A program made the translations under genes and the position numbers. 64,000 nt of DNA from Impatiens glandulifera (taxonomy: Eukaryota > Streptophyta > Magnoliopsida > Ericales > Balsaminaceae): contig NC_061862.1 in NCBI RefSeq assembly GCF_907164915.1, positions 120,989,533 through 121,053,532 of the forward strand, written 5' to 3'. The notes under the pieces were generated by a model. It saw only the letters and a program-made list of their open reading frames with translations, ran no database searches and was not told where the DNA came from. Shown piece after piece: positions 41,316-57,160 of this stretch. Numbering within the stretch: position 1 is the stretch's first letter; the number at the start of each line of letters is the position of its first letter.

Positions 41316-43890
41316 AATGAGTTAAGAAAGGTCAATTTCTCTACCAACACCACTCTTAAAGAACTAGTAGGGATCATATCCGCTAGTTCGCAACACAACA
41401 TGATCAACATTCAAGACAAGGATCTTCCATCAACCGAATCAAACAATGATAAAGCCCTTTACATTTTTATACAAATGAAGGGAAAGACTGTTTTGATGGT
41501 CTTAATAGACAATGAATCCGCTCTCAACAGATGTTCTTGGCGGACTCTTGAGAAGATTGGAGTATCCCGAGACAGGATCAAACCATCTAACCTGTGTGTT
41601 AGAGGTTTTGACAGCTCTCGCCATGAGATAATGGGTTGCCTCAAGTACACCGCCCGAGTGGCCGGCATACCATTCCAAGTTGACTTTTGTGTCATCAACA
41701 TGCAGTCTTCCTTTAACTTGATCTTAGGAAGACCATGACTGCATCAAGCCAAGGATTTAACGTCTACTCTACACCAAAACCTCAGGTTCATCTCCAACGA
41801 TCAAGTTATCACAATCAATGGCGTAACTCACACCACAACTGTCATTGGGCCTACCCATATTCACATCCTTAAGGTTAAACTAAGCAGATTTGAGATATGT
41901 CTAATCGTCTCAGAAGGTAAGGACTCATCCAAACCAACTTACTTTAGTATGTTTAGCCTCTCCTCCATTAGAATGATGCACAAAATTGGATAGTTCCCTA
42001 ACATGGGTTTAGGTCGAACGCCAATAGCATGCCATCATCCCACAACCCTGTTGTAACATGGATTGCCACGGTCTAAGATATGTCCATATAGGATTCGAAG
42101 AAATCCTCTAGGAGAGAATATCCAAACGACGCATAGGTGTTCCACCAACCTTGAATGAATAGTTCATCTACGAGGGATAAAGCACTCTATGTTTTGAATT
42201 TTCTGAACCCTTTACCAATTTAGATTTATAGAGACTTTTACTAGGTCTCAAATATTTTTCAGATTGTCCTCATAATCCTAACCCTTCTGTTTGTATGATT
42301 AGGAAAAGAACGGACTATTGGCGGGACGCCCTGGAAAACTTGGCTCGGATTCCCAAGACTTCTTATTCAGCTCAAGAAGCTAGCTCTTCCGATCATCAAA
42401 GAACTGACTTCTTTTCAACAGTCGATACCGTGATCGACAAAAATAGAACTCTTTCTCCTCTCATGTGTAGAGAGACGTTAAATACTATACATTGTAAGAA
42501 ACTTAAGAACATTAATATTGTTAGATCACCTTTTCTTACATGTAATAAACCCATCGATGTAACACAAGAAGTAGACTTCAAATCTATGAGTAAAAATGAT
42601 ATTTTATTTTACTCTAACTTAAACTTCGAAACAAAACAGTTCTTCGAAACTGAGGATGGGATTGTCTCCTCCGCGAAAAAGACAATTAAAATTATTTTAA
42701 ACACAGTCGATGATCCTCAGATCATACTAATCGACCAAAGTTTAAACCCACGAGAACGTCTGGAGATAGTTGAGCTAATGAAAGTCAACAAAAACGTCTT
42801 CGCCTAGTCATATAAGAACATGCCATGCATTGATCCAAAAATCACACGATATCACATTCCTCTATATCCTGACGATAAGCCAGTAAAGAAAAAGCTCATA
42901 CGGATGAAAGAGGAAGTCGTGAATAAAATACGAGAAAAAGTCTAAAAGCAACTTGAATATGGAATATCCTACCTAGATAGCTAACGTAATTCTTGTCCTA
43001 AAGAAATATGGGAAACTACGCGTGTGTGTAGATTATCGGGATCTGAATAAGGTCAGCCCTAAAGATCACTTCCCGCTACCACACATCGACATATTAGTTG
43101 ACCATGTTGCCGGTCATGAACTATTTTTATTCAGGAATGGATTTTTAAGATACAACCAAATCCTATGGCCCCGCAAGACAAGGAAAACACCACATTTATA
43201 ATAGAAATATGCACCTTCTATTATACGGTCATGCCTCTCGGTCTTAAGAATGCGGGAGCCACCTATCAAAGGGCAACCACCACGATCCTTCATGACATGA
43301 TCCACAAGGAAGTGGAAGTATATGTCGACGATATGATTGTCAAATCAAAGGATCGAAAAGGACATGTCCCAAACCTTGAGAAATTCCTACAACGAATTAG
43401 GAAAATTTCAACTAGGACTCAACCTAAAGAAACGTACATTTAGAGTCACAACTAGTAAAATACTAACTTCTTTATCACATAAAGGGGCATTGACGCTGAT
43501 CCCTTTAAGATAGAAATAATCACAGATATCCATAGATTTTTCAGTAAAATCTAATACATTAGCCGATTCATCAACAAGCTTACTATGACATACGATCCGT
43601 TGTTTAAGCTGCTGAAGAAAGACCTAAAGTTTGTATGGGATAAAGACTGTCAACAAGTATTTGACTAAATCAAGGATTATTTAAAATCCCCTCTCATATT
43701 TATGCCGCCCAAAATTGGCATTCTCTCATCCTATATCTTACTGTAACAGACACATCCATGAGAAGCCTGTTGGTTCAAAAAAACAAGGACAAACTCAAAA
43801 TGGCTGGGTCACTAAAAGATTGATACACTAGCTAGGTCATCAGTAAGAGGATGACTGCGTGTGAACTTAATTACACTCTAAATGAGAAAA
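41316..43890 (+). pseudogene. Gypsy protease, RT and start of RNase H
   Basis: The protease ORF 41400-41738 contains VLIDNESALN, where an active protease has D-[ST]-G or D-N-G; the Gly is replaced by Glu. It runs to INMQSSFNLILGRP, where a TGA stands at the expected Trp. ORF 42295-42807 is the linker ending IVELMKVNKNVFA. RT follows with LRVCVDYRDLNKVSPKDHFP and the catalytic VYVDDMIVKS (near 43320), broken by frameshifts (near 43140) and stops. RNase H starts with VTDTSMRSLLVQ and ISKRMTACELNYT, and is cut at 43890 by the Copia-type element. Confidence 0.85.
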
Positions 43891-45320
43891 TAATAAGATC
43901 GATGTAATCAATAGAGACGGGGTCTAACTATTAATGATAACTTCTGGAAAACGGTTTGATAGAAATCCTATTAGAGATTAATATCACTTTCTATTCTTCA
44001 CAAACCCTTGCAAACTCTTGAAGCGATTCAAGTGCGGAAACGTTTGCTCAGGTTTGAAGCTAAGAACCAATGAGAGAAGGAAAGACAAAATGAAAAAGAC
44101 ACAGCAAGTTGTTTATGGATGTTTAGAGCAAACTCTCCTATGTGACTCCTTCTTCCAACCATCGGAAAGATTCACTATACTTCTTTGAATCAAATACAGT
44201 TTACTGGCTAGCTAACTGTTGAACAGAATAGGCTCTGTTCAACTTACAATACGATTAAGATTATTTCTCAGCTACACAGATTTTGATTCTCTCTTGAACT
44301 TGAAAATGTACAAATCAGAAAGTACTAGAGTATGAGATTGATAGTAAGTAGGGCTTGTGAAATCAGTAAGTCTGGTACGCTTGTAAAAATTTGTTACACT
44401 ATTTGGTATGTCGACCGTTGTCCTTGAGGATCTATATATAGAAGAAAGACACCAACGGTCGAATCTTCTAGATGGACACGTGGCAAGCGACCATTGGAAA
44501 GCCTCCATAGTACAAGAGTACAATAGGCTCTATGCACAAGGATCGTGGCCGTACCGAACTGGTAGTGTGCTGGATATTCTTCTGGAAATGTCCTTTACTA
44601 AACAAGTAGTTAGAGGAATATTCACGTACATGGCATTCATTCATTGGATACAAATAGCTGGCATACCGGTCTTCACAAATGAGTGGAGCAGGAGTAGCGT
44701 ACAACTAATTGATCGTGGGTAGACGGATGCTAACTTCAAGCAGCTGCTGAAGCGAGGCATTAGACGTGCTCCAATATACTACAAAGTCTAAGGAAGTTAG
44801 ACGGCAACGTCTAATAGCGAGATCCATTAGACCACCAAGTCTAATGGAGTTAGACTACATGTCTAACTACGTATCTGTTAGACTACACGTCTAACTATGT
44901 ATCTGTTAGACTGCACGTCTAACTACGTATCTGTTAGACTGCACGTTTAACTACGTATCTGTTAGACTGTACGTCTAACTACGTATTTGTTAGACTGCAC
45001 GTATAACTACATATCTGTTAGACTTCATGTCTAACTACGTATCTGTTAGACTGCACGTCTAACTACGTATCTGTTAGACTGCACGTCTAACTACGTATTT
45101 GTTAGACTGCACGTTTAACTACGTATCTGTTAGACTGTGTATCTGTTAGACTGCATGTCTAACTAGCAATACGTCTAATTAGCCTATTTCAAACCAAGTC
45201 TATCTTAATATATTTTTGATGCACCTGCACAAAAACAATTAGACGACTTAGCTTCATTCTTATCAAAGTTTTACTAATACATCATTAAAATAATGTCAGT
45301 CAAAATAATTTGACCCAACA
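43891..45320 (-). repeat. 3' LTR of the Copia-type element
   Basis: On the minus strand it begins TGTTGGGTCAAATTATTTTG at 45320, right after the polypurine-like CCAAAAGTGGGAAAT. Length is 1430 bp. A TATA-like CTATATATAGATCC lies at 44428-44441. Upstream of it, in U3, is an array of about 28 bp hairpin repeats. The other end has decayed from TGATAGGATC to TAATAAGATC. Confidence 0.85.
44849..45164. repeat. 28 bp hairpin repeat array in 3' LTR
   Basis: About eleven units of GTTAGACTGCACGTCTAAC + TACGTATCT. Each unit contains GTTAGAC and its inverse GTCTAAC around a 5 nt TGCAC loop. The array lies in U3, upstream of the LTR TATA box. Confidence 0.9.
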
Positions 45321-45493
45321 ATTTCCCACTTTTGGATGATGTTAAAACTTTGCACAATTAATAAGATAAGATAATCACCCATCAAATTAAAATAAGAATG
45401 ACATTAGTTCACAAACTTCAAGTGTAAGTTCCAAAAACCAAATTCAAAAACCAAGTTCAGAAACCAACAAAAGATAATTTAAAAGAAAAGAGA

Positions 45494-48400
45494 TTATTGT
45501 CCTTCCCTTTTAACGTTTGGATTAACGAATCCTTCACCAGTCACGAGATTACGAACTTGAGGAAGGAGAGCACGACCACTATTGGGAGCACGACCACCCC
45601 TTCCACCACCTCGGTCACCACCGCGACCTCCACCTCCTTTGGTTGGTCTGCAACCTCCTTCCTCAACGACTTTTATTTTTGTTTTGGTTCCTGTCGAAGC
45701 ACCTCCTCTTAAGCTACTACTTCTAGAACTGCTGCCACCTCCTCTTGATCTACCTTCCCCCTTTTTAACATTATCAACATCAATGGCAATAAGGCTTTTC
45801 TCTTTCTCAGCGGCAGCTTCAACATTTTCCATGGCCTGAATTGATCTTGTAAAGGAGTCAGCTTGTTCCATACGTTCAACGTCGGCTTTGTTCATGCAAT
45901 TGGTCATCCTAACCATTTGAGTTTGTACAAGATTCATTCCAGATATAATTTCTTGATGAAGATTCAGGTTGAATTCCCTTTCTTCCTCAAACTTTTCATA
46001 CTGTCTTTTGAAGAAGTTCTTTTCAAATTTGGAATAGGTAGTGTTGACAATGTTGATTTCACAAGTGTTTCTTTTTATGGTCTTATCCAATTCTTAGTGA
46101 GTTGCAAGAAAAGAAGAAAATTCTTTCTTGTTTGAAATATTACTCTTCTCAAGTTTTAACATTCTGGACTGCATATCCAGCATATTCTTTTGAAGATAAT
46201 GCATCATTTCTGACATAGAGATTAACAACTTTCCACTTTCATGAGGGGTTTCTTCAGCAGATGACATCTCAGGAGGGCTAGCTGGAGTAGTTCTAATGAG
46301 ACTAACATGAGTATGAGCCTACACAGAGTGCTTTAGTTCATCTACCTCAGATTCATTCCTGGACTTCTCTTGATCTTTGAGAATGTCTTCACAAACCTTA
46401 CGAATCTGTTCAGAAGGTCCTTCGGAATGAACAGGTAGATCAACAACTCTTTCAAAATATTCGCTGATATTATTTCAGGAGAGGATCGAGGAGACGGTGA
46501 TCAGGGAATGAAGCATTATGATAACGGTAGACCTTGTGACGAATTATCATTGTTGTCTTGTTCCCCCTCAGCGGAAGGACTCTTATCAGATTCGTCTTCT
46601 TTCGAGGGTTCCCCCTCAGATTGTGCTTCAATAGGCTTTTCAACCTTTGTCTCTTTCTTTGAAGATTTTTCTACCTCTAGACCATGAGTTTCAAATACTT
46701 CTGATTCCTGTAGAATATGCGGTTGAATGAATTCAGCATTATTCTCCTCTTCTTTCATGATTGGATCAGGTTGAACGGGATCTAGAGTCTGATCAATACG
46801 GGGCTAAGCTAGAAGGAATTTTTCTTCAACAGAAACATTCCTTAGTTTAATAAGTTGAGCAGAAGCTTGCTTTTCTTCTTGTAAAACCAAATTATTATCC
46901 TCAAATATTTGTATCGGCTCGTCTTCATCTGATGGATTATAAAACAGATTCAACTCTGAGCAGTTGGCACCGTGAACAAATCCGAGAATATTTGAGCTAT
47001 AGTTTTGCATGATTTGGTCAATTCTTTTTAATGTCTTTTCTTCTGCAGCAACATTTCATTCCATTGGATTGAAATTTTCTTTTCTTGCTTCGAGCACAGG
47101 AAAAAGAGTCCAACCTCTGATATTGGCTTCTACCAGTTCTTTCCTCTTGAGAGCTTCATAGACCTTAGAGGTGTTAGCCTACTTCAGAACCCGTTTCTTC
47201 ACGTTAACCAGCTTCAACCACTTTTCGCTGACACCTTTTCCATTAATATTTTGATCATATCTATTGGCCATTCTGTTCATAACTCATGTATCGAAGATGT
47301 TAATTTCCGTAACTTCTTTCGCATTGGCTAGATTCATCATTAGATTGACAATGTAAGTTGCTTCAGAAACTTCCTCATCAGATTCGTTTTCAATAGCCTT
47401 TCCCTTTCCAATACCCTCAACGGGTTTAGGAATTGGCCTTGGTTCACCGATAGATATGCCATCAACTCTCTTGGTGGCTCTCATGATTTCGTGAGGTGTT
47501 AAGAGCTTGGAAAAATGCCCGGATAAGACGTTAGACTAGATTCCTTTTCCCGTGACAACGTACTTTTCTTGAACACTTTTAGATACTAGTGGCTCGACAT
47601 TTGGCAGAATGGGAGCATGTTCAGACGTTACTACAACAACAGGGGTAGGAATAGCACCCTACTCTGTTTTGTCAGTAACAATAGCTTCAACAGCTATAGG
47701 ATCATTTGGGCGGACAGGAGACTAAATTTTGTCAATACTTTCAACATTTTGACCAACTAGCTCAACAGTTGGCCCGATAGTATGTTTCAACACAAGAACA
47801 GAAGCAGATACAAGTTGTTCCAACATAGGAATACTAAAATTATGCACTTCGGCCAGAGAAGGAGGAGGAGTTACCTTCGAGGAAGGTTTGGATGATTTTG
47901 ACGCCTTAGGCGCCTTTAACTTTTCATCTTTTGAAACGGAAGACTTTGCCAACTTTTTCAACTGGCTGGCGGATGGAGAAAGCGGAGACATCGGGATGGC
48001 TGAAAGTGAAGAGGGACCTTGATTTGCTCTAGAGTCAACCACTCCAGAATTTTTCTTCGAAGAACTCTTTTGAATATTAGAACTAGCCTCCAATTCATTA
48101 ATAGTTCTTGCTTTTTTAGCCCATGTAGAGAGAATAGAGGTTGTTGGTTGCTTGGAACGAGTAACAGATTTGCCACCCGTCTATTGGATATATGCACCAA
48201 AGAAGGACTCCTTTGAGCTCTTCATTCTTGTGAGGGTGTTGGCAACGATAAAGATGTTGAACACACAGCTAGTGTGAATATCCTCTCCTTCTCCCATAGG
48301 AACCTCCAAATGTTTCATAAATTGACTGAGATGGGAAGCGAATCTCACACTCTCCTTGTTCTTAGAATCAATCGACCCACACAGATTAGAAAAGAGTGTC

Positions 48401-48927
48401 GAAGCCCAGTTGACTTGAATTCCCTTTGAGATGGTCGTCATATAGTCGAATCAATCCTGACTACAGAGATGAAATGAACATGCTATTCATTGAAGAGCCT
48501 TTGCAACAATGTCGTTCAAAAGAATGAAATGGGGTTTGAGAACTTTTTTACTCTCATTTAGCTTGATTTCCGAACCGTCGGCCGAAAAAGCAGTCTTCAT
48601 TTCCGAGATGGTTTCCGCTGGAAGATGAAGATTAAAAGTGTGGCCCTCCGATGGAAGTTCAAAGAACTCCGAATAAGACGCCTCATCAAAAGATATAATT
48701 GTTTCTTTCACTGTTGTAGAGATGAAATCACCAACCTTGGTCGCCGATTTAAAGAACTCCCGAACTTCCTTCTCGTGGAAAATAAACGGGCCGCCGAGAT
48801 ACTTTTCGAGGCCGGAATACTTTAAGGATCGGAACATGTCCACCACTTCCTGTTGATTGAAAGCATACACCAATGCGAAGTCTACCTACAAAGTGCAGTG
48901 ACCAAGGGTAATCTTTTTGTTATCCAT
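45494..48927 (-). pseudogene. Extra ORF of the Copia-type element, RGG-box protein
   Basis: About 1,140 codons, mostly in one frame, starting MDNKKITLGHCTL at ATG 48927. The N-terminal part (VVDMFRSLKYSGLEKYLGGP, FELPSEG, TFSADGSEIK, FILLNDIVAKA) resembles proteins I recall from Lamiales genomes, some auto-named dystroglycan-like. A second globular stretch (VNWASTLFSNLCGSI) follows, then a long acidic, Ser/Lys-rich disordered region, a coiled-coil-like segment near 46000, and a C-terminal RGG box (GGGGRGGDRGGGRGGRAP). About a dozen in-frame stops, mostly TAG, and a frameshift near 46490 break it. It belongs to no pol domain. A role in RNA binding is inferred from the RGG box only. Confidence 0.6.
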
Positions 48928-49043
48928 TTGAGGGAAGATGAACAAACTCAAGATGAACAATATTCTTAAGAGATAAATTTAGAGAAAGCTAGGGTTCTAG
49001 AGAGATTTGTGAGCATAAAGGTTTCAATCGCATGAAATATGTC

Positions 49044-49051
49044 CTTAAATA
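49044..49051 (-). promoter_or_regulatory. TATA-like box before the extra ORF
   Basis: TATTTAAG in the context GTCTATTTAAGGAC lies about 117 bp upstream of ATG 48927 on the coding strand. An AACCCTAGCTTTCTCT leader lies between. This looks like a plant core promoter plus 5' UTR inside a retroelement, so the extra ORF may have its own transcript. Confidence 0.45.
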
Positions 49052-50050
49052 GACTTCGAAGAGTCACATGGCTTAATCGTCACTTTTTATAAAGGTAGGA
49101 CCCACTAATTAATGTTTGACGTCTTTTCTTGCAGAAAGTCATCATTAATTTAGGTGTGTATCAGTCTCTCTCTTTTAACTAGAAAGACACATGTCTTCAT
49201 GTTATTTGAAAGTGACTGTTTTAATGTTTGACCGGGAGAGTTAGATGACACCGCATAGAGGACAACTGTCCTTGATCATTTCTTTGAAAAAGAAGCGTCT
49301 AATAGTACACGTAGTTAGACATTTTTCTTACTTCTACAATCCATATGATCTAAGCGTCTATTAGACGCAGACGTCTAATCACATGTCTTATAGATGTCTA
49401 AATGTCTATTAGACGTTGACGTCTAATTAAGCATGAGCAACACATATTAGACGTGTGTTTGGTTAGACATGAGCGTCCAATTGCTCTTGTCTTATAAACG
49501 TCTAAACGTCTATTAGACTTCAACGTCTAACTGCGCAGCCGCGCAGGTTATTAACCAAGACAATTTAACTTAGAGGCAGAGAGTGTGTAAGTAAGAATAC
49601 GTCTAAGTACTTGCTTTTTCTTTTAGACGACCTCGTCTAATAGACCGATTAAAGCTTTAGTCTGTGTGCATCTTTATTTATACAATAAATTTCCCTCTCA
49701 ATTTATGCATATAGAAAAAGATTAAATAAATATTTTGAGGTCCTTAAGACCAAAAATATTTTAAGACAGAAAACACTTAGTCCTTAGAAGTGGCAAGTGC
49801 CACTGTTGATCTTCTAGAGCATGTACTCATAAGAGTATGCTCCAAGCTTCCTTCCTACAGCTTCCCTGTATCACCTACACAAGAAAATATTTACAAACTT
49901 TGATACCCACATTCACTTGGGTCCTCAATCAATCAGTCCCTTAGGAATCCATATTTGAGTTATTTTTATGGATTTCCCATTTTGTTTTGTGATTAATGCG
50001 TATGATTTTGACTTAGCAGACGTCTTTCTTCTAGCCACTGATTCCTTAGC
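49052..50050. other. Spacer between gag and extra ORF with TAGACGTCTA motifs
   Basis: 49290-49680 contains a dozen or so TTAGACGTCTAA-type motifs (CGTCTATTAGACGCAGACGTC and similar), related to the LTR hairpin array but not in strict tandem. 49720-50050 may encode the degraded gag C-terminal tail (IWIPKGLID). No other gene seen. Confidence 0.6.
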
Positions 50051-51710
50051 TTAAAAGGATGATTTTCTTTTAAAACTCCTTGACATTGAGTCAAGTTTTA
50101 GATAGCCAAACTTGCTACTTGCATCTAACTTATTTTTCAGCCAGTTAACAGACGGTGGAACATAAGTTATTTCATCTTTTAAAGCTAACTCCTCATGGAT
50201 TGGATCAGTTTCAGTATCAGTTAGACTCCCTTTGACAAAGCTTATTGGCTTAAGCTTGTCAGTTGCTGAGTTTAACTTTTTATAGGACTGGTTTGGGTCA
50301 TTAGTATCAAATCCTAAAATGAATTTGGATCCAACAAATTTCAACAGACTAATCTGATATTTGACAGTTTCTCCAGACCTTGCCCAAGCACTAACAATAT
50401 AGTTTAACCTTTTGTTTTCAGAAGAGAGAATTTATATCTGTTCTTTGAGCATCTCATTCTCAGATGAGATCTCGACCTTGCCATTTTCAAGAATGTTTAA
50501 TTCTAGAGTTTGAGATAAAATAGGTTGAGACACTTCAGAGGAAGATTTTATTTCATTCTAGGATTCTGATAACTTTATGTACTCTATGACCATGTCATTT
50601 AGTGCAGCTACCAATTCTTCCCTTGAAAATTTTTCAGAAGAGAAGTCAAATACCTCAGATTCCTGAGCTTCTTCTTCTTCCCTTGTCATGAAGCAAGCAA
50701 CCTCGTCATCATCACTATCGCTAGACGATGAATCAGAATCACTATAGTTCTGTTTGTTCTTCCCATCGCTTGCCAAGAGAGCCTTCAGCTCCTTTTCTTC
50801 GTTTTCTTTTTCTCATTGCGCTTCAGCTTTCGACATTCCGATTGGTCATGAACTAAAATACCACAGTTAAAACACTTAACATTAGCTTTAAATTTCTTAT
50901 TGTCATTGGTATTTGAGGAGATTGAGTTAGAATTTCTCTTCTTCATGAAGTTATCAAACTTCTTCACGAGGAGAGACATAACATCGCTACTAAGCTGTTG
51001 GGCAGCTGTCTTCACATCAGGGGAAACCGGTGACTCTTTTGCAGTCACCAAGACTTTGGTAATGATGTTGGATGAGGGTTGATATTCTTCAATCCTTGAA
51101 TTCAGCTCGAACTCATAAGTCTTGAGATCAGGAAACATATCGAAGAGCCCGATCTTGTTGAGGTCTTTGGATTCCTTCAATGCCATTGTTTTTATGTCCC
51201 ACTCCCTTGGTAAAGATCGCATGACCTTGATAGCAATCTCCCTGTTGCTGTAGGTCTTGCCAAGAATGGATAGAGTGGAGATAACCTTGCTGAACTTTGC
51301 GTCAAACTCAGTCATTGTTTCTCTAGGACACATTTTGAAGTTGTCGAACTACTAAGTGGCAACCATGATTTTTTCTCTTTGGTTTGCTCATTGCCCTCAC
51401 ACAGTTGAGTGAGTCTGTCCTAGATCTCCTTGGCAGTTTCACACTCGATGATGTAGTTGAACATGCTGTCATCAAGAGATCTATACTGGACGTCAAATAC
51501 CATGTTGTTGAGGTTGTTTCTCCTCTTATCTTCGCTGGTCCATTCAGATTTCTCCTTTTTGATCTTGATGGGACCATCTGTGATAACACTCCACATGTCA
51601 TCAAGAAGAAAGAAAAGATGAGCACAGACTCTCTTTTTCCACACAATATAGTTTTCTTTTGAGAACGTTGGGATTACGATAGCATTAACATCTTTGGATA
51701 TGATCGACAT
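50051..51710 (-). pseudogene. Copia-type gag with zinc knuckle
   Basis: It starts MSIISKDVNAIVIPTFSKEN at 51710, 44 bp after the primer site, as usual for Copia elements. The Copia gag (UBN2-like) domain follows, with NYIVWKKRVCAHL, and ETMTEFDAKFSKVISTL and MRSLPREWD further on. The intact CCHC knuckle CFNCGILVHDQSEC sits at about residue 290. Then come an acidic Ser/Asp tract and the tail FVGSKFILGF. Two adjacent TAG codons near 51350 and a frameshift near 50800 break it. No protease follows. Confidence 0.82.
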
Positions 51711-51740
51711 TCTTGGAGATAGCTTGAGAATAGAAACAGG

Positions 51741-51752
51741 ACTCTAATACCA
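51741..51752 (-). other. Primer binding site of the Copia-type element
   Basis: TGGTATTAGAGT on the minus strand, two bases after the LTR end, is a one-substitution form of the initiator tRNA-Met site and supports minus orientation. Confidence 0.8.
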
Positions 51753-52498
51753 ATTGATAGGATCAGTGTAATAAATAGAGACGAGGGTCTAACTATTGAT
51801 GACAACTTTTAGAAAACGGTTTGATAGAAGTCCTGTTATGGATTAATATCACTTTTTATTCTTCACAAACCCTTGCAAACTCTTGAAGCGATTCAAGTGC
51901 GGAAACGTTTGCTCAGGTTTGAAGCTAAGAACCAATGAGAGAAGGAAAAACAGAATGAACAAGACATAGCAAGTTGTTTATGGATGTTCGGAGCAAACTC
52001 TCCTACGTCACCCTTCTTCCAACCACCGGAAGGATTCACTATACTTCTTTGAATCAAATACAATTTACTGGCTTCCTAACTATTTAACAGAACAAGCTTT
52101 ATTCAACTTACAATATGATTAAGATTATTTCTCAGCTAGACATATTTTGATTCCCTCTTAAACTTGAAGATGTACAGATCAAAAAGTGCAGGAGTATGAG
52201 ATTGATAGCAGGTAAAGCTTATGAAATAGTACACTCGTAAAACTTGTTGTTCACTGATAAGGCTGGTATGTCGATCGTTGTCCTTAAGGATCTATATATA
52301 GAAGACAGACACCCACGGTCGAATCTTCTAGATGGACACGTGGAAAGCGCCCATTGGAAAGCCTCCATAGTACAAGAGTACATCAGTCTATGTGCACAAG
52401 GATCGTGGCCGTACTGAACTGGTAGTGCGCTGGATATTCTTTTGGAACTGTCCTTTACTGAACAAGTAGTGGGAGGAATATTCGCGTACGTGGCATTT

Positions 52499-54780
52499 TG
52501 TTAGGGTCTCCAAATTAAGGCCTCGGTCCTAGAATAATTCCTGCAACCTTTCTCGGCACCCGTTCTCGGTCATATTGTGCACATTGGCCATATTTCTATT
52601 TTGTTGTATTAATATTTTGTTTTGCTTTCCTTTTCTATTTTACAAACCGAATTCTATTATTTTCTATTAGTTGTTGTAACCAAATATTCTGGGGCAAGAC
52701 ATCACCTATATAAGGCTGGTCTTTCTTCCCCAAGGACCCATGAATAGAATAATGAAGATATGAACTTCGCCCCCATTCGTCTATTATTATTTACTATGGA
52801 CTGTTTGGTATAGACCAACAGTATTTCTCTTCGCACCCTTGGTTCTTCAATCCCTCATCCCTAATTCTCTACTAAAATTCTTCCGTTTCTCTTTGATTGT
52901 AGAATTTCCAACTGATCCTAGAGATCAAGAACTTGATTCTTGAGATCAAGAACCCATAATCACACCTTACGAAACAAGTCGTAACATTCTTGGTATTAGA
53001 GCAAGACGATACTCGAATGAAAGAAATCCGATAGCAAATAAAGATGGATGCTCTTAAGACCCTACTCGATGGCCTGACACAACAATATGCCTCCGTGCAA
53101 GCGTCCTTGCAGCAACACATGACCGAACAAGCTGCTTTGCACAATGCCTTTCAGCAAAATATGGACAGAAGGTATGCTGCTGGAAAAAGCTTGACAACCA
53201 TTGAAAGAGGTGCGTTTAATAATGGCCAAGATCCCCGCACCCGACCCTATGTTAATGCTTATTACTACTTTCCTCCAACCCGGCTCACAAATGTTAATAT
53301 TCCTGAATTTGATGGGACTGATTTGGATGGCTGAATCTTATTTGCCGAGCACGTCTTTAGGGTGGGCAAGACGAATGATGCCACAAATCTGGACATTGTC
53401 CGTACTCATTTCTCAAAAGAGGCAAGAACGTGGCATGAATCATATTTGGAGAATCGCAACCATATGGAAGCCTTGACATAACATGTATTCAAGAAAGATC
53501 TCTTGCTGCGATTCGGTCGCAGACCCTTGTACAACGCTGAACCGACGTTGCTGCCCAAACCATGCAATGTTAACACGGCCTAGCCAAGCAGCAAATCCAG
53601 ATTATTCATGGACTCGAGTAATCATCAAGAACCCATTCAAGAACCTCCTAAGAAAATGTTTTAGATGATCCACTTTTGCTGCATGAGGCGGGCAGCGAAC
53701 CTGCCATTTCTTTGCAAGCATAGACCCTTTCTTATGAGAAGCAAGACACAACCACAGTCTTGAATAATATGCATCAGACGCAGGTCAACATAATGCAAGA
53801 CGACCAGCTGGACAAGACCTTGGAAAAATATAATGTTACTGCCTCGATACCAATAAAGAGTAAGAACAAATGCCAAATTGTTTCACTTGATTTGGAAGAC
53901 ACTCCTGAAAATTTCCAGCAAATAATCAAAGGGCTCAACCAGCAACCCAACAATCGACCACCAGCCAGGAAGGTAGTTAGAAGACATGGCTATGTTGTTG
54001 CACATGTGTTGCTAATTTGGATAAAGGACTGGGCTTGGTTATTTGAAGACATTCTAGAGTATGTCCAGAAGAAAAATGGTCCTTTTGCTGCACCTGGCGT
54101 GTTGGGCCGAAGGAAGGACTGATTTAGAGCGGGAAGACCGAAGGCTTTTAAGAAATGTGGTCCTAGACTCCGACACTTGCTGGAATTGCTGAAGTCCGAC
54201 CGAATTCTTTGAAATTTTGAGCATGCGCATTAGAGGCTCGGCATACCACGGTCTTTTTCGTCGAGGGCAACGAATTTTGAAAGGGGGGATAATGTTAGGG
54301 TCTCCAAATTAAGGCCTCGATCCTAGAATAATTCCAGCAACCTTTTGCGGCACCCGTTCTCGGTCCTATTGTGCACATGTGTCATATTTCTATTTTGTTG
54401 TATTAATATTTTGTTTTGCTTTCCTTTTCTGTTTTACAAACCGAATTCTGTTATTTTCTAGTAGTTGTTATAACCGAATATTCTGGGGCAAGATATCACC
54501 TATATAAGGCTGGTCTTTCTTCCTCAAGGACCCATGAATGGAATAATGAAGATATGAACTTCGCCCCCATTTGTCTATAATTATTTACTATGGACTTTTT
54601 GTATAGACCAACAGTATATCAGTTCGCACCCTTGGTTATTCTATCCCCTCATCCCTAATTCTCTACTAAAATCCTTCCACTGCTCTTTGATTCTAGAATT
54701 TTCACCCGGTCCTAGAGATCAAGAACTTGATTCTTGAGATCAAGAACCCATAATCACACTTTACGAAACAAGTCGTAACA
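52499..54780 (+). mobile_element. Small LTR element with gag fragment only (TR-GAG/LARD-like)
   Basis: Both LTRs are 488 bp (52499-52986 and 54293-54780), starting TGTTAGGGTCTCCAAATTAA and ending CAAGTCGTAACA. The primer site TGGTATTAGAGC is at 52991 and the polypurine tract AAAGGGGGGATAA ends at 54292. The 5 bp flanks are CATTT and CATTC. The interior is 1.3 kb and holds only gag-like sequence. It is inserted in the 5' LTR of the surrounding Copia-type element. The close LTR match suggests a fairly young insertion. Confidence 0.9.
53044..54121 (+). pseudogene. Gypsy-type gag fragment in the small LTR element
   Basis: From ATG 53044 it reads MDALKTLLDGLTQQYASVQA, a Gln-rich coiled-coil-like stretch, then NVNIPEFDGTDLDG followed by TGA at an expected Trp. 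It continues FAEHVFRVGKTND and SKEARTWHESYLENRNHMEA, the retrotransposon gag core. A second open stretch (53760-54119) ends VLGRRKD. The gag core contains stops, and there is no zinc knuckle, protease or pol. Confidence 0.7.
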
Positions 54781-54994
54781 CATTCATTTATTGGATACAA
54801 ATAGCTGACGTACCGGTCTACACAAATGATATGAGCAGGATTAGCGCACAGCTAGTTGATCGTGGGTAGACGAATTCTAACTTCAAGCAGCTAATGAAGC
54901 GAGGCGTTAGACATACTCCATTAGACTTCTAAGTCTAAGGAAGTTAGACTCCAACGTCTAATAGCGAGATTCATTAAACCACCAAGTCTAATGG

Positions 54995-55349
54995 TGTTAG
55001 AATGCACATCTAACTACGTATCTATTAGACTGCACGTCTAACTGCGTATTTGTTAGACTGCACGTCTAACTGCGTATTTGTTAGACTGCACGTCTAACTA
55101 CGTATTTGTTAGACACGTCTAACTGCGTATTTGTTAGATTGCACGTCTGACTGCGTATTTGTTAGATTGCAAGTCTAAAAGCGTATCTGTTAGACTGTAC
55201 GTCTAACTGTGTATCTATTAGACTGCACGTCTAACTGCGTATCTGTTAGACTGCACGTCCAAATGTGTATCTGTTAGACTGCACGTCTAGTTGCGTATCT
55301 ATTAGACTGCACGTCTAACTGCGTATCTGTTAGACTGCATGTCTAACTA
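54995..55349. repeat. 28 bp hairpin repeat array in 5' LTR
   Basis: Same unit as in the other LTR, about twelve or thirteen copies, here mostly with GCGTATTTG or GCGTATCT between hairpins. Unit sequence and copy number differ from the partner LTR, so the arrays changed after insertion. Confidence 0.9.
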
Positions 55350-55505
55350 GCAACACGTCTAATTAGCCTGTTTCAAACCAAGTCTAACTTAGCATATTTT
55401 TGATGCATCTGCACAAAAACAATTAGACGGCTTAACTTTATTTTTAATCAACGTTTTACTAATACATCATTAAAATAACGTTAGTCAAAATAATTTGACC
55501 CAATA

Positions 55506-57160
55506 GAAAATATGTTGGGCCTTATCATGCATGGGTCACCAAAAGATTGATACTCTACATGCAAGCCCATCCCATCAAGTTGGTATCAAGACTAGACCCA
55601 ATCCACTTCTTGTTCCAACAAACTATTATGTCATCAAGTCTAGACAAAAGGATGATGATGTTATCTAAATACGAAATAGCCTACACGATACAAAAGTCTA
55701 TTAAAGGAAGCGTTGTTACGAAATTTCTTGCTGACCAATCCATCATTGTTGAATTAGAAGACGAGCTCGAGTTCCCCGATGAGGAAATTATGAGTATAAC
55801 ATCAGACACATGAAAACTGATGTTTGACGGAGCTTCTGGAATGCAGGGTTACGAAATTGGGATTTTGTTAGTTAACTCAAAAGGGACATACAACCCAATA
55901 TCCATAAAACTTGAATATCCCATCACCAATAACAAGGGCGAATATGAATCCTGCCTCTTGGGTCTTAAATTGGAATATGAAAAGGAGAAACAAAGTTAGA
56001 AGTTGTTGGTGACTCTAACTTGGTTATATCCCAAGACAATGGTACGTGACAAGTGAAAAGGGAAAACATGAAACCCTACCACACCCATTTGACCAAACTA
56101 ATTAGCAAATACAATCAAGTATTATTGGTTCACGCTCCAAGAAGCCAAAACCACTTTGCGGATGCCCTGGCTACTTTGGTAGCTATGACTCAAATTCCCG
56201 ATGGAATTAAGTTAAACCTCTAAAAATCCGACAAACGCAACAACATGCTTTTGAATCAGGATCAATCATTTTCTATAAGAATGTTGTTAAACCCTGGTAT
56301 TATACTCTCTAGAAGTACATTGAGTATGGAAAATATCCTTCACATTTCCGAGTTAAGGAATGATGGGCTTTGCTTCAGTATTCCACCAACTATGTGTGGA
56401 TCGCTAATAGACGTTATCGTCAATCTTTCGACAGTCAAAACATGCTCTAAATACATAATTCTAAATCCTAGAGGATCATGGAAGAAGTAAAAGTAGGGAC
56501 ATGCAATCCATGCATGAATGGAATGCCTTCAGCCAAGAAAATACTCTATTTCAGATATTATTGGCAAAACCTTGACTAAGAATGTGTAAGTTATGTAAGG
56601 AGTTGTCATCAGTGCCAAATATATGTTAACTTGAAGCATACACCGACCTCGCTCCTTTACAACATGAAATCCCCTTGTACCTTCTCTACATTTGTGTGCT
56701 TGAAGCGGCAAACAAAAATCTGATTTGGATCAACAAGAAGATGACCAGAACGTATAAGGACTGACATGAGAAGCTCTCATACGCCTTATTGAGATATCGT
56801 ACAACCGCTTGAACCTCAACGAATGAAACTCCTAGTCTCTAGTTTACGATATGGACACCGTACAACCCATCAAAATCAAGATTCCAACCCTAAGAATACT
56901 TTTAGAGAGCCACGTTATTGAAGAAGACTAGCTCAAATCCCGACATGACCAACTAATGTTAATGGAGGAAAAAAGGTTAAACGCTCTATGTAAACTCAAG
57001 CCTACAAAAAATGCATGTTAGACACCTTCAATAGGAAGGTAAAACCTAGAAACCTCAAAGAAGGTGATCTAGTTCTTAAAAGAACACGAGAACTCCTAGA
57101 CCCTAGGGGCAAGTTTCGACTCCAATGGGAATGACCTTCCTACTTAATAAATTTCTCTCT
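55506..57160 (+). pseudogene. Gypsy RNase H, second RNase H and integrase
   Basis: It resumes with CWAL, then LYMQAHPIKLVSRLDPIHFL and IQKSIKGSVVTKFLADQ. The second RNase H-like domain follows: KLMFDGASGMQGYEIGILLV, PITNNKGEYESCLLGLKL, and HAPRSQNHFADALATLVAM with frame breaks. Integrase keeps part of the zinc finger (SCHQCQIYVN) and the C-terminal end (VKPRNLKEGDLVLKRTREL), but most of the DDE core is deleted. Many stops. It ends near 57150 at a GPY-like motif. Confidence 0.8.

What the first reader, a model, noticed from the sequence alone, without database searches (positions are those of the whole stretch)
45494..48927. Copia-type element without pol but with a long RGG-box extra ORF
The element has a perfect target duplication, gag, and then a roughly 1,140-codon ORF that is neither pol nor env. 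The ORF has two globular regions, a disordered acidic middle, and a C-terminal RGG box. It is in the sense orientation and preceded by a plant-like TATA box and leader. It may be a host-derived or lineage-specific gene carried by the element, perhaps aiding RNA packaging or handling. This is my best candidate for an under-described system in the window.
Basis: partly seen in the sequence, partly recalled or inferred. Interest (0 to 1): 0.75.

Follow-up and report, generated by a model that had tools for sequence, protein, structure and literature searches.

The report
Pol-less retrotransposon keeping an RGG gene
An old, decayed jumping element in a balsam genome belongs to a large family in which no enzyme genes were seen but which keeps, under selection, its coat gene and a second gene of unknown function with a promoter-like stretch of its own, which may help show what such extra genes in plant retroelements do.

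Summary
The element is real: minus strand of an Impatiens glandulifera chromosome, 43891-55505, perfect 5-bp GAAAA duplication, 1.4-kb LTRs 88% identical, Copia gag, no room for pol. The "1,140-codon ORF" is not open in this copy: codon 14 is a stop, 12 of 1,100 later in-frame codons are stops, and the frame changes once. As a family trait the ORF (ORF2) is real: at least 195 distinct places in the genome; besides L033, 3 of the 45 best long matches have no stop in the match (open frames 1,101-1,127); dN/dS is 0.20 between two younger elements against 1.27-1.28 in shifted frames. LTR/primer-site and purine-tract junctions match the published Sirevirus (SIRE) signature; two other SIRE traits were not met. 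ORF2 sits in the slot of the SIRE "env-like" extra ORF, behind a conserved TATA box, leader and palindromes shared with the LTRs. It has no membrane segment and ends in an RGG box. Best reading: a SIRE-derived non-autonomous family that lost pol, keeps gag and the extra ORF, and borrows enzymes in trans; RNA handling by ORF2 is inferred only. No partner, no homologue outside Impatiens and no usable fold were found. New variant of a known kind.

The parts
43886..43890 (.). target-site duplication GAAAA, one side
   Evidence: read by eye
43891..45320 (-). 3' LTR; 13 palindromes TTAGAC-N0to8-GTCTAA (up to 1 mismatch), none in 40 shuffles
45321..45493 (-). linker after ORF2 with a degenerate terminal purine tract AAAAGTGGGAAAT directly before the LTR start TGTTGGG
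45494..48927 (-). ORF2 region (broken): conserved N-terminal part about 48885-48184, second conserved part about 47535-47000, acidic part about 46803-46519, frame change between 46519 and 46474, C-terminal part and RGG box to 45497
49043..49051 (-). internal TATA-like box TATTTAAGG; TCTAT[A/T]TAAGGA in 6 of 6 aligned copies, TATA pattern in 16 of 20 others
49361..49640 (.). cluster of five 18-bp palindromes TTAGAC-N6-GTCTAA (one with a mismatch) upstream of the TATA-like box; none in window gag, ORF2 or linker
49916..51710 (-). gag region (broken here; open 598-codon ORF in the younger element L033); lower end placed by alignment to L033, approximate
51741..51756 (-). 5' LTR end CA, spacer ATTGG and primer site TATTAGAGT
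51755..52498 (-). 5' LTR, part nearest gag
52499..54780 (.). nested insertion with 489-bp terminal direct repeats, splitting the 5' LTR; not part of the family
54781..55505 (-). 5' LTR, outer part
55506..55510 (.). target-site duplication GAAAA, other side
   Evidence: read by eye

Best explanation
The region is a dead copy (LTR divergence 0.13) of a large family of non-autonomous Copia retrotransposons descended from the SIRE/Sirevirus lineage. The family lacks pol but keeps two genes: gag, and ORF2, which takes the place of that lineage's 3' sense extra ORF (called env-like or eORF-3'F elsewhere). Shown: layout, cis signals, coding constraint on both genes, conserved promoter-like sequence, recurrence. 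Inferred: the LTR promoter makes genomic RNA and Gag; a separate internal promoter, sharing its palindromic boxes with the LTR, makes an ORF2 mRNA; ORF2, a protein without membrane segments and with an acidic stretch and an RGG tail, binds element RNA or Gag-RNA complexes and helps packaging, transport or escape from silencing; protease, reverse transcriptase and integrase come in trans from an autonomous SIRE element that recognises the kept primer site, purine tract and LTR ends.
For: Structure: in L033 and L035 the order LTR-gag-about 1 kb-ORF2-LTR uses up the sequence; 10 of the 11 stop-free spacer pieces of 45 codons or more in these two were scanned and hold no Pfam family above cut-off. 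Of 20 older copies, 18 keep spacer next to ORF2 and 13 have a gag match upstream in sense. 38 of 150 gag places have an ORF2 N-terminus downstream within 30 kb, 37 of them within 1.93 kb; 23 of 45 best ORF2 places have a listed gag place 0.98-2.15 kb upstream. Constraint: ORF2 dN/dS of L033 against L035 is 0.20 over 1,019 codons, shifted frames 1.28 and 1.27; these two against the 21 older copies (42 pairs) 0.31, shifted 0.94 and 1.15; gag 0.26 against 0.87 and 0.86. Besides L033, three of the 45 ORF2 matches have no stop in the match. SIRE signals: CA/ATTGG/TATCAGAGC exactly in L014, L022, L024 and with one change (TATTAGAGC) in L011, L027, L033, L035; AGGGGGAA-AT/TG in L009, L014, L015, L016, L021, L026, against the published CA/ATTGG/TATCAGAGC and AGGGGGAG-AT/TG (PMC2829016 passages). 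Palindromes in the 3' LTR and just upstream of ORF2: window 13 and 5, L033 46 and 4, L035 28 and 4; 0 in gag and ORF2 of all three; ENV-bearing Sireviruses are published with boxes in these two places. TATA and leader conserved. No membrane segment.
Against: No pol-bearing partner found: none of 150 RVT_2 places lies within 15 kb of 150 gag places, and the 73 best gag matches have open frames of only 588-644 codons; these lists are the best-scored few of more than 10,000 candidates each, so they exclude little. L034 has an open gag but no ORF2 match in the 10 kb read. Seven of 20 older copies show no gag match in sense; in L014, L018, L019 and L020 the last part of gag is missing and in L027 the spacer. 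No reverse-transcriptase query was run against the copies; pol absence rests on layout and the Pfam scans. Extra purine tracts, a SIRE hallmark, are absent from the linker, and L033 gag has one zinc knuckle where SIRE gags are described with several. The palindrome core is not the published CGG-CCG. SIRE lineage is defined by reverse transcriptase, absent here. In the acidic part dN/dS 0.41 stands against 0.64 and 0.58 in shifted frames, weak evidence. RNA binding rests on the RGG box alone; both structure models are unusable (mean pLDDT 31.9 and 37.1). No transcript data.
Confidence: 0.7

Rival explanations
1. ORF2 is a host gene captured by this element (transduction), with its promoter, and merely carried along.
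For: It has a gene-like TATA box and leader and no relative among known families above cut-off.
Against: At least 195 distinct places in the genome (150 + 45 without overlap); divergence between element lineages is deep and under constraint; upstream boxes are those of the LTR; no cellular homologue in three protein searches, whose sensitivity is limited to shared 5-residue words.
Confidence: 0.12
2. ORF2 is a true envelope-like membrane protein.
For: It sits in the env-like slot of SIRE elements, with boxes upstream as in ENV-bearing Sireviruses.
Against: Highest 19-residue hydropathy is 1.01 in the L033 ORF2, and 1.06 and 1.48 in two N-terminal pieces of other copies, below the usual 1.6 (threshold recalled); RGG tail. 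No signal-peptide test was made.
Confidence: 0.04
3. The reading frame is chance or decayed junk in a repeat, open in some copies only because they are young.
For: The window copy is broken in both genes; 41 of the 45 best ORF2 matches carry at least one stop; among the 21 older copies the middle part (0.59 against 0.63 and 0.80) and the acidic part (0.61 against 0.51 and 0.82) hardly differ from shifted frames.
Against: dN/dS 0.20 at synonymous divergence 0.51 between two younger elements, about 1.3 in shifted frames; window in-frame stops 12 of 1,100 against 52 of 1,095 and 109 of 1,100.
Confidence: 0.02
4. The family is one half of a two-part retroelement: a partner encodes pol and depends on ORF2 made here, so the relation is mutual, not parasitic.
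For: Two non-enzymatic genes are kept under selection where no enzyme gene was seen; no pol-bearing member with the same LTR was seen in what was read.
Against: Partner unknown; gag and ORF2 could be selected in cis only; the gag-bearing L034 shows no ORF2 in the stretch read.
Confidence: 0.1

Closest known systems
SIRE lineage / Sirevirus genus of Ty1/copia elements with a 3' sense extra ORF (SIRE1, ToRTL1, Inga and others)
   Same: LTR/primer-site junction CA-ATTGG-TATCAGAGC, purine tract followed by AT/TG, inverted repeat around it, palindromic boxes in the LTR and just upstream of the extra ORF, extra ORF in sense next to the 3' LTR (PMC2829016 and PMC6317226 passages)
   Different: no pol; no extra purine tracts in the linker; one zinc knuckle found; palindrome TTAGAC-GTCTAA, not CGG-CCG; ORF2 has no membrane segment, whereas SIRE env-like proteins are described with transmembrane and coiled-coil domains (PMC3414828 passages)
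RLC_Giselle of barley, a Copia family without reverse transcriptase and integrase thought to be moved by RLC_Inga
   Same: gag kept, reverse transcriptase and integrase lost, trans-mobilisation proposed (PMC5738225 passages)
   Different: no second gene is mentioned for Giselle in the passages seen; here ORF2 is kept under selection
TR-GAG elements (terminal-repeat retrotransposons with only gag)
   Same: LTRs plus gag, no pol (name seen in a search listing; definition recalled)
   Different: here there is a second, larger constrained ORF with a promoter-like stretch of its own
Athila-type sense extra ORF with Pfam PF20167 (Transposase_32), as in sunflower Athila 14
   Same: sense 3' extra ORF (PMC11728184 passages); the window N-terminal piece has a sub-threshold PF20167 match, E 0.22
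   Different: none of the 150 best PF20167 places in this genome coincides with the 195 ORF2 places, nearest 10.5 kb; Athila is Ty3/gypsy
Retand elements with antisense TRP28 ORFs
   Same: long extra coding region next to the 3' LTR, some members non-autonomous (PMC11963269 abstract)
   Different: antisense and Ty3/gypsy

Membership tests
SIRE lineage / Sirevirus | reverse transcriptase phylogeny within the SIRE clade | not testable with these tools
   no pol in the copies read
SIRE lineage / Sirevirus | 5' LTR/primer-site junction CA-ATTGG-TATCAGAGC | tested here: met
   exact in L014, L022, L024; one change in L011, L027, L033, L035; other variants in L020, L026 and the window; the pattern found the junction in 10 of 24 sequences, several of the rest lacking gag and that stretch
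SIRE lineage / Sirevirus | purine octamer ten bases before the 3' LTR followed by AT/TG | tested here: met
   AGGGGGAA-AT/TG in 6 of 24 sequences (L009, L014, L015, L016, L021, L026; final G to A as published for ToRTL1 and Tnd-1); altered in others, among them L033, L035 and the window
SIRE lineage / Sirevirus | inverted repeat around the purine tract | tested here: met
   L033 and L035: TTCATCAAAA before the tract and TTTTGATGA inside the LTR, read by eye; other copies not checked
SIRE lineage / Sirevirus | several purine tracts in the linker near the 3' LTR | tested here: not met
   no second copy found in the linker; the other AGGGGGA copies near it lie inside ORF2
SIRE lineage / Sirevirus | palindromic boxes in the LTR and upstream of the ENV-like gene | tested here: met
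   placement met in window, L033, L035; core sequence differs from the published CGG-CCG
SIRE lineage / Sirevirus | several zinc knuckles in gag | tested here: not met
   one CCHC stretch in L033 gag; feature taken from PMC3414828 passages
Non-autonomous pol-less Copia elements | LTRs and target duplication with no protease, integrase or reverse transcriptase | tested here: met
   layout of window, L033 and L035 leaves no room; no pol family in gag or in 10 of 11 spacer pieces; target duplication checked in the window only
PF20167 Transposase_32 | score above the Pfam cut-off of 45 bits | tested here: not met
   11.8 bits for the window piece; 1 of 7 aligned members matches at E 1 or better
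Retroviral-type envelope | membrane-spanning segment | tested here: not met
   hydropathy scan of one ORF2 and two N-terminal pieces

The most novel reading that the evidence does not exclude
The family is the non-enzymatic half of a two-part retroelement. It supplies Gag and an RNA-binding ORF2 from two coordinated promoters (LTR and internal, with the same palindromic boxes), while a separate element supplies all enzymes. The so-called env-like ORF of SIRE elements would then be an RNA-handling factor needed in cis or shared in trans, not an envelope.
Probability: 0.15. Interest if true: 0.8.

Novelty: new variant of a known kind. Interest (0 to 1): 0.5.

Why it matters
The function of the extra sense ORF of SIRE elements is called unproven, controversial or speculative in the passages seen (PMC2829016, PMC3414828, PMC6317226), and an internal promoter for it was proposed but not conclusively identified. 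Here pol is gone and this ORF is kept under selection behind a conserved TATA-plus-leader stretch next to LTR-type palindromes. So it is worth something to the element apart from its own enzymes, and the promoter idea can be tested with transcript ends in one species.

Tried and rejected
Protein searches outside the species: three searches returned 6, 3 and 3 proteins, all from Impatiens glandulifera; the method needs shared 5-residue words, so distant relatives are not excluded. Pfam on ORF2 pieces: nothing above cut-off. NCBIfam: none for the L033 ORF2. Solved structures: none. Structure prediction: both models below confidence, so no fold search was made. Pol partner: RVT_2 search and two gag searches gave none; the lists are capped. 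Host capture, envelope and junk readings: see rivals. L034, also fetched, has gag but no ORF2 match, so it could not enter the ORF2 tests. Pol remnants: 10 of 11 spacer pieces of L033 and L035 and 10 of 28 stop-free pieces from L034 and from the copies without sense gag (28 listed) showed no pol family; L028 upstream holds a Copia gag piece on the other strand.

Papers: PMC2829016, PMC3599292, PMC3414828, PMC4093653, PMC5738225, PMC6317226, PMC11728184: passages found by term; PMC7264820: abstract and one section; PMC11963269: abstract; all others search listing only. Print was searched; none of these listings showed by title or abstract start a pol-less SIRE element with a constrained extra ORF, but I opened only the papers named.
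Full report
What was claimed and what is there. The window lies in a 654-Mb assembly whose contig lengths C2, C4, C6 and C9 equal those under Impatiens glandulifera proteins, so I take it to be that balsam, of Ericales. The element is on the minus strand. Self-comparison gives two LTRs; reading the ends sets the element at 43891-55505 between two GAAAA copies. The 5' LTR is split by a nested insert at 52499-54780. The LTRs differ by K2P 0.129, about 5 million years at a recalled rate of 1.3e-8. L033 and L035 give 0.034 (over 1,159 aligned bases, its 5' LTR being cut by the end of the stretch) and 0.043, and are called younger here.

The ORF is broken here. 45494-48927 is not a multiple of three; codon 14 is a stop; frame 0 carries the coding signal to 46519, frame 2 from 46474 to the RGG tail. 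Along the coding frame as defined by the window, 12 of 1,100 codons are stops, against 52 of 1,095 and 109 of 1,100 in the other two frames; 6-17 in-frame stops are seen in the 20 older copies, 1 in L033 and 4 in L035.

The ORF is real as a family trait. Its first 132-residue piece matches 150 places at 71% identity or more (150 scored of 17,189 candidates). The 1,025-codon open stretch of L033 matches 45 places nearly end to end (45 scored of 16,816). The two lists share no place, so at least 195 exist. Of the 45, four have no stop in the match: L033 itself, whose N-terminus lies in another frame, and three with open frames of 1,127, 1,101 and 1,127 codons; 41 carry stops. I single out none of them.

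Selection. Pairwise NG86 on ungapped codons: L033 against L035 dN 0.099, dS 0.507, ratio 0.20 over 1,019 codons; shifted frames 1.28 and 1.27. By part (shifted frames in brackets): N-terminus 0.13 (1.56, 1.90), middle 0.24 (1.21, 0.94), acidic 0.41 (0.64, 0.58), C-terminus 0.16 (1.35, 1.82). These two against the window and 20 older copies (42 pairs): 0.31 (0.94, 1.15), with synonymous sites near saturation, so that no value came out for the N- and C-termini. Among the window and 20 older copies (210 pairs): 0.49 (0.68, 0.87) overall and 0.28 (0.91, 1.09) in the N-terminus, as expected if neutral decay after insertion is added; there the middle (0.59 against 0.63, 0.80) and the acidic part (0.61 against 0.51, 0.82) hardly separate from shifted frames (all). 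gag, L033 against L035: 0.26 (0.87, 0.86).

Recombination. Between L033 and L035 blocks of 100 columns are 0.87-0.98 identical in gag, 0.80-0.98 in the spacer, 0.88-0.92 in the first 300 bases of ORF2 and 0.75-0.93, mostly 0.78-0.90, in the rest. Synonymous divergence is 0.14 in gag but 0.51 in ORF2. The simplest reading is that older ORF2 lineages were brought together with one recent gag by template switching; I ran no formal test.

Pol. In L033 and L035 the order LTR, gag (598 codons in L033), about 1 kb, ORF2, 0.2 kb, LTR uses up the sequence, and 10 of their 11 spacer pieces show no pol family. The Pfam scan of L033 gag shows gag and zinc knuckle but no protease. That gag ends just where a protease would begin is recalled from other Copia elements, not tested. 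Of the 20 older copies, 13 have a gag match in sense, 7 (L012, L013, L015, L016, L017, L021, L028) none in the stretch read; 18 keep spacer next to ORF2. In L014, L018, L019 and L020 the last part of gag is missing. L034, chosen by its open gag, has no ORF2 match: its spacer stops and other DNA follows. The 73 best gag matches have open frames of 588-644 codons, so no long gag-pol fusion is among them. A partner was not found; the available lists are too short to exclude one.

Lineage signals. The junctions fit the published Sirevirus signature: the CA-ATTGG-TATCAGAGC junction and the purine octamer followed by AT/TG. Palindromes TTAGAC-N-GTCTAA occur 13, 46 and 28 times in the 3' LTR of window, L033 and L035, 5, 4 and 4 times between gag and ORF2, and not in gag, in ORF2 or, in the window, in the linker (linkers of L033 and L035 not counted); shuffle means are 0.33 or less in each region. 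Sireviruses with an ENV gene are published with boxes in just these two places. Against membership: no extra purine tracts in the linker, and one zinc knuckle in L033 gag. I therefore call the family SIRE-like or SIRE-derived and do not file it in the genus.

Promoter. Between the palindromes and the ATG six aligned copies share TCTAT(A/T)TAAGGA and a CT-rich leader with AGAA(C/T)CCTAG; 16 of 20 older copies match the TATA pattern, L022, L024, L027 and L028 do not. In the window LTR the tandem array likewise precedes a TATATATA box; the same pattern was not found in the L033 LTR.

Protein. By eye and composition ORF2 has a conserved N-terminal part of about 230 residues, a Ser/Thr/Pro-rich stretch, a second conserved part, an acidic stretch, a further charged part and an RGG tail. 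No membrane segment. No named domain; a PF20167 match of the window piece is far below cut-off (E 0.22). Models are unusable. The same ORF appears in I. glandulifera annotation as several uncharacterized proteins and under names such as 'ankycorbin-like', 'titin-like' and even 'geraniol 8-hydroxylase-like'.

Mechanism. Shown: structure, cis signals, coding constraint, conserved promoter-like sequence, recurrence. Inferred: trans supply of enzymes, separate ORF2 mRNA, RNA binding by ORF2 and its role in packaging, transport or escape from silencing. I put about 0.9 on a non-autonomous gag-plus-extra-ORF family, 0.8 on SIRE descent, 0.6 on the internal promoter and 0.35 on an RNA-handling role. 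On checking, I lowered the overall confidence from 0.72 to 0.70 because L034 had been given too little weight.

Novelty. Extra sense ORFs are common in SIRE elements (74%, in 19 groups with little or no mutual similarity, PMC6317226 passages) and a Copia family with gag but without reverse transcriptase and integrase, moved in trans, is proposed in barley (RLC_Giselle). Keeping the extra ORF under selection while pol is gone, with a visible internal promoter candidate, is the new variant.

Noticed in passing
52499-54780: Nested insertion in the 5' LTR with 489-bp direct repeats 92.6% identical and short plus-strand pieces reading like a gag (by eye); looks like a small LTR element on the plus strand.
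   Followed up: partly
43165-43443: Plus-strand 92-codon ORF that reads like a Ty3/gypsy reverse transcriptase fragment (by eye, recalled motif), so the element sits in or beside another retroelement.
   Followed up: no
P0009 (database protein): A protein annotated as geraniol 8-hydroxylase-like is a cytochrome P450 fused to the N-terminal part of ORF2, probably a gene model that runs out of this retroelement.
   Followed up: partly
L033, L035: ORF2 is far more diverged (dS 0.51) than gag (dS 0.14) between two elements, a sign of module exchange between element lineages.
   Followed up: partly
L034:1-10000: Element with an open 599-codon gag frame whose spacer breaks off into unrelated DNA with no ORF2 match; a gag-only member, a truncation or an insertion.
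   Followed up: partly
44849-45165: LTR tandem array carrying the palindrome; its size varies between elements (13 to 46 palindromes in three LTRs).
   Followed up: partly
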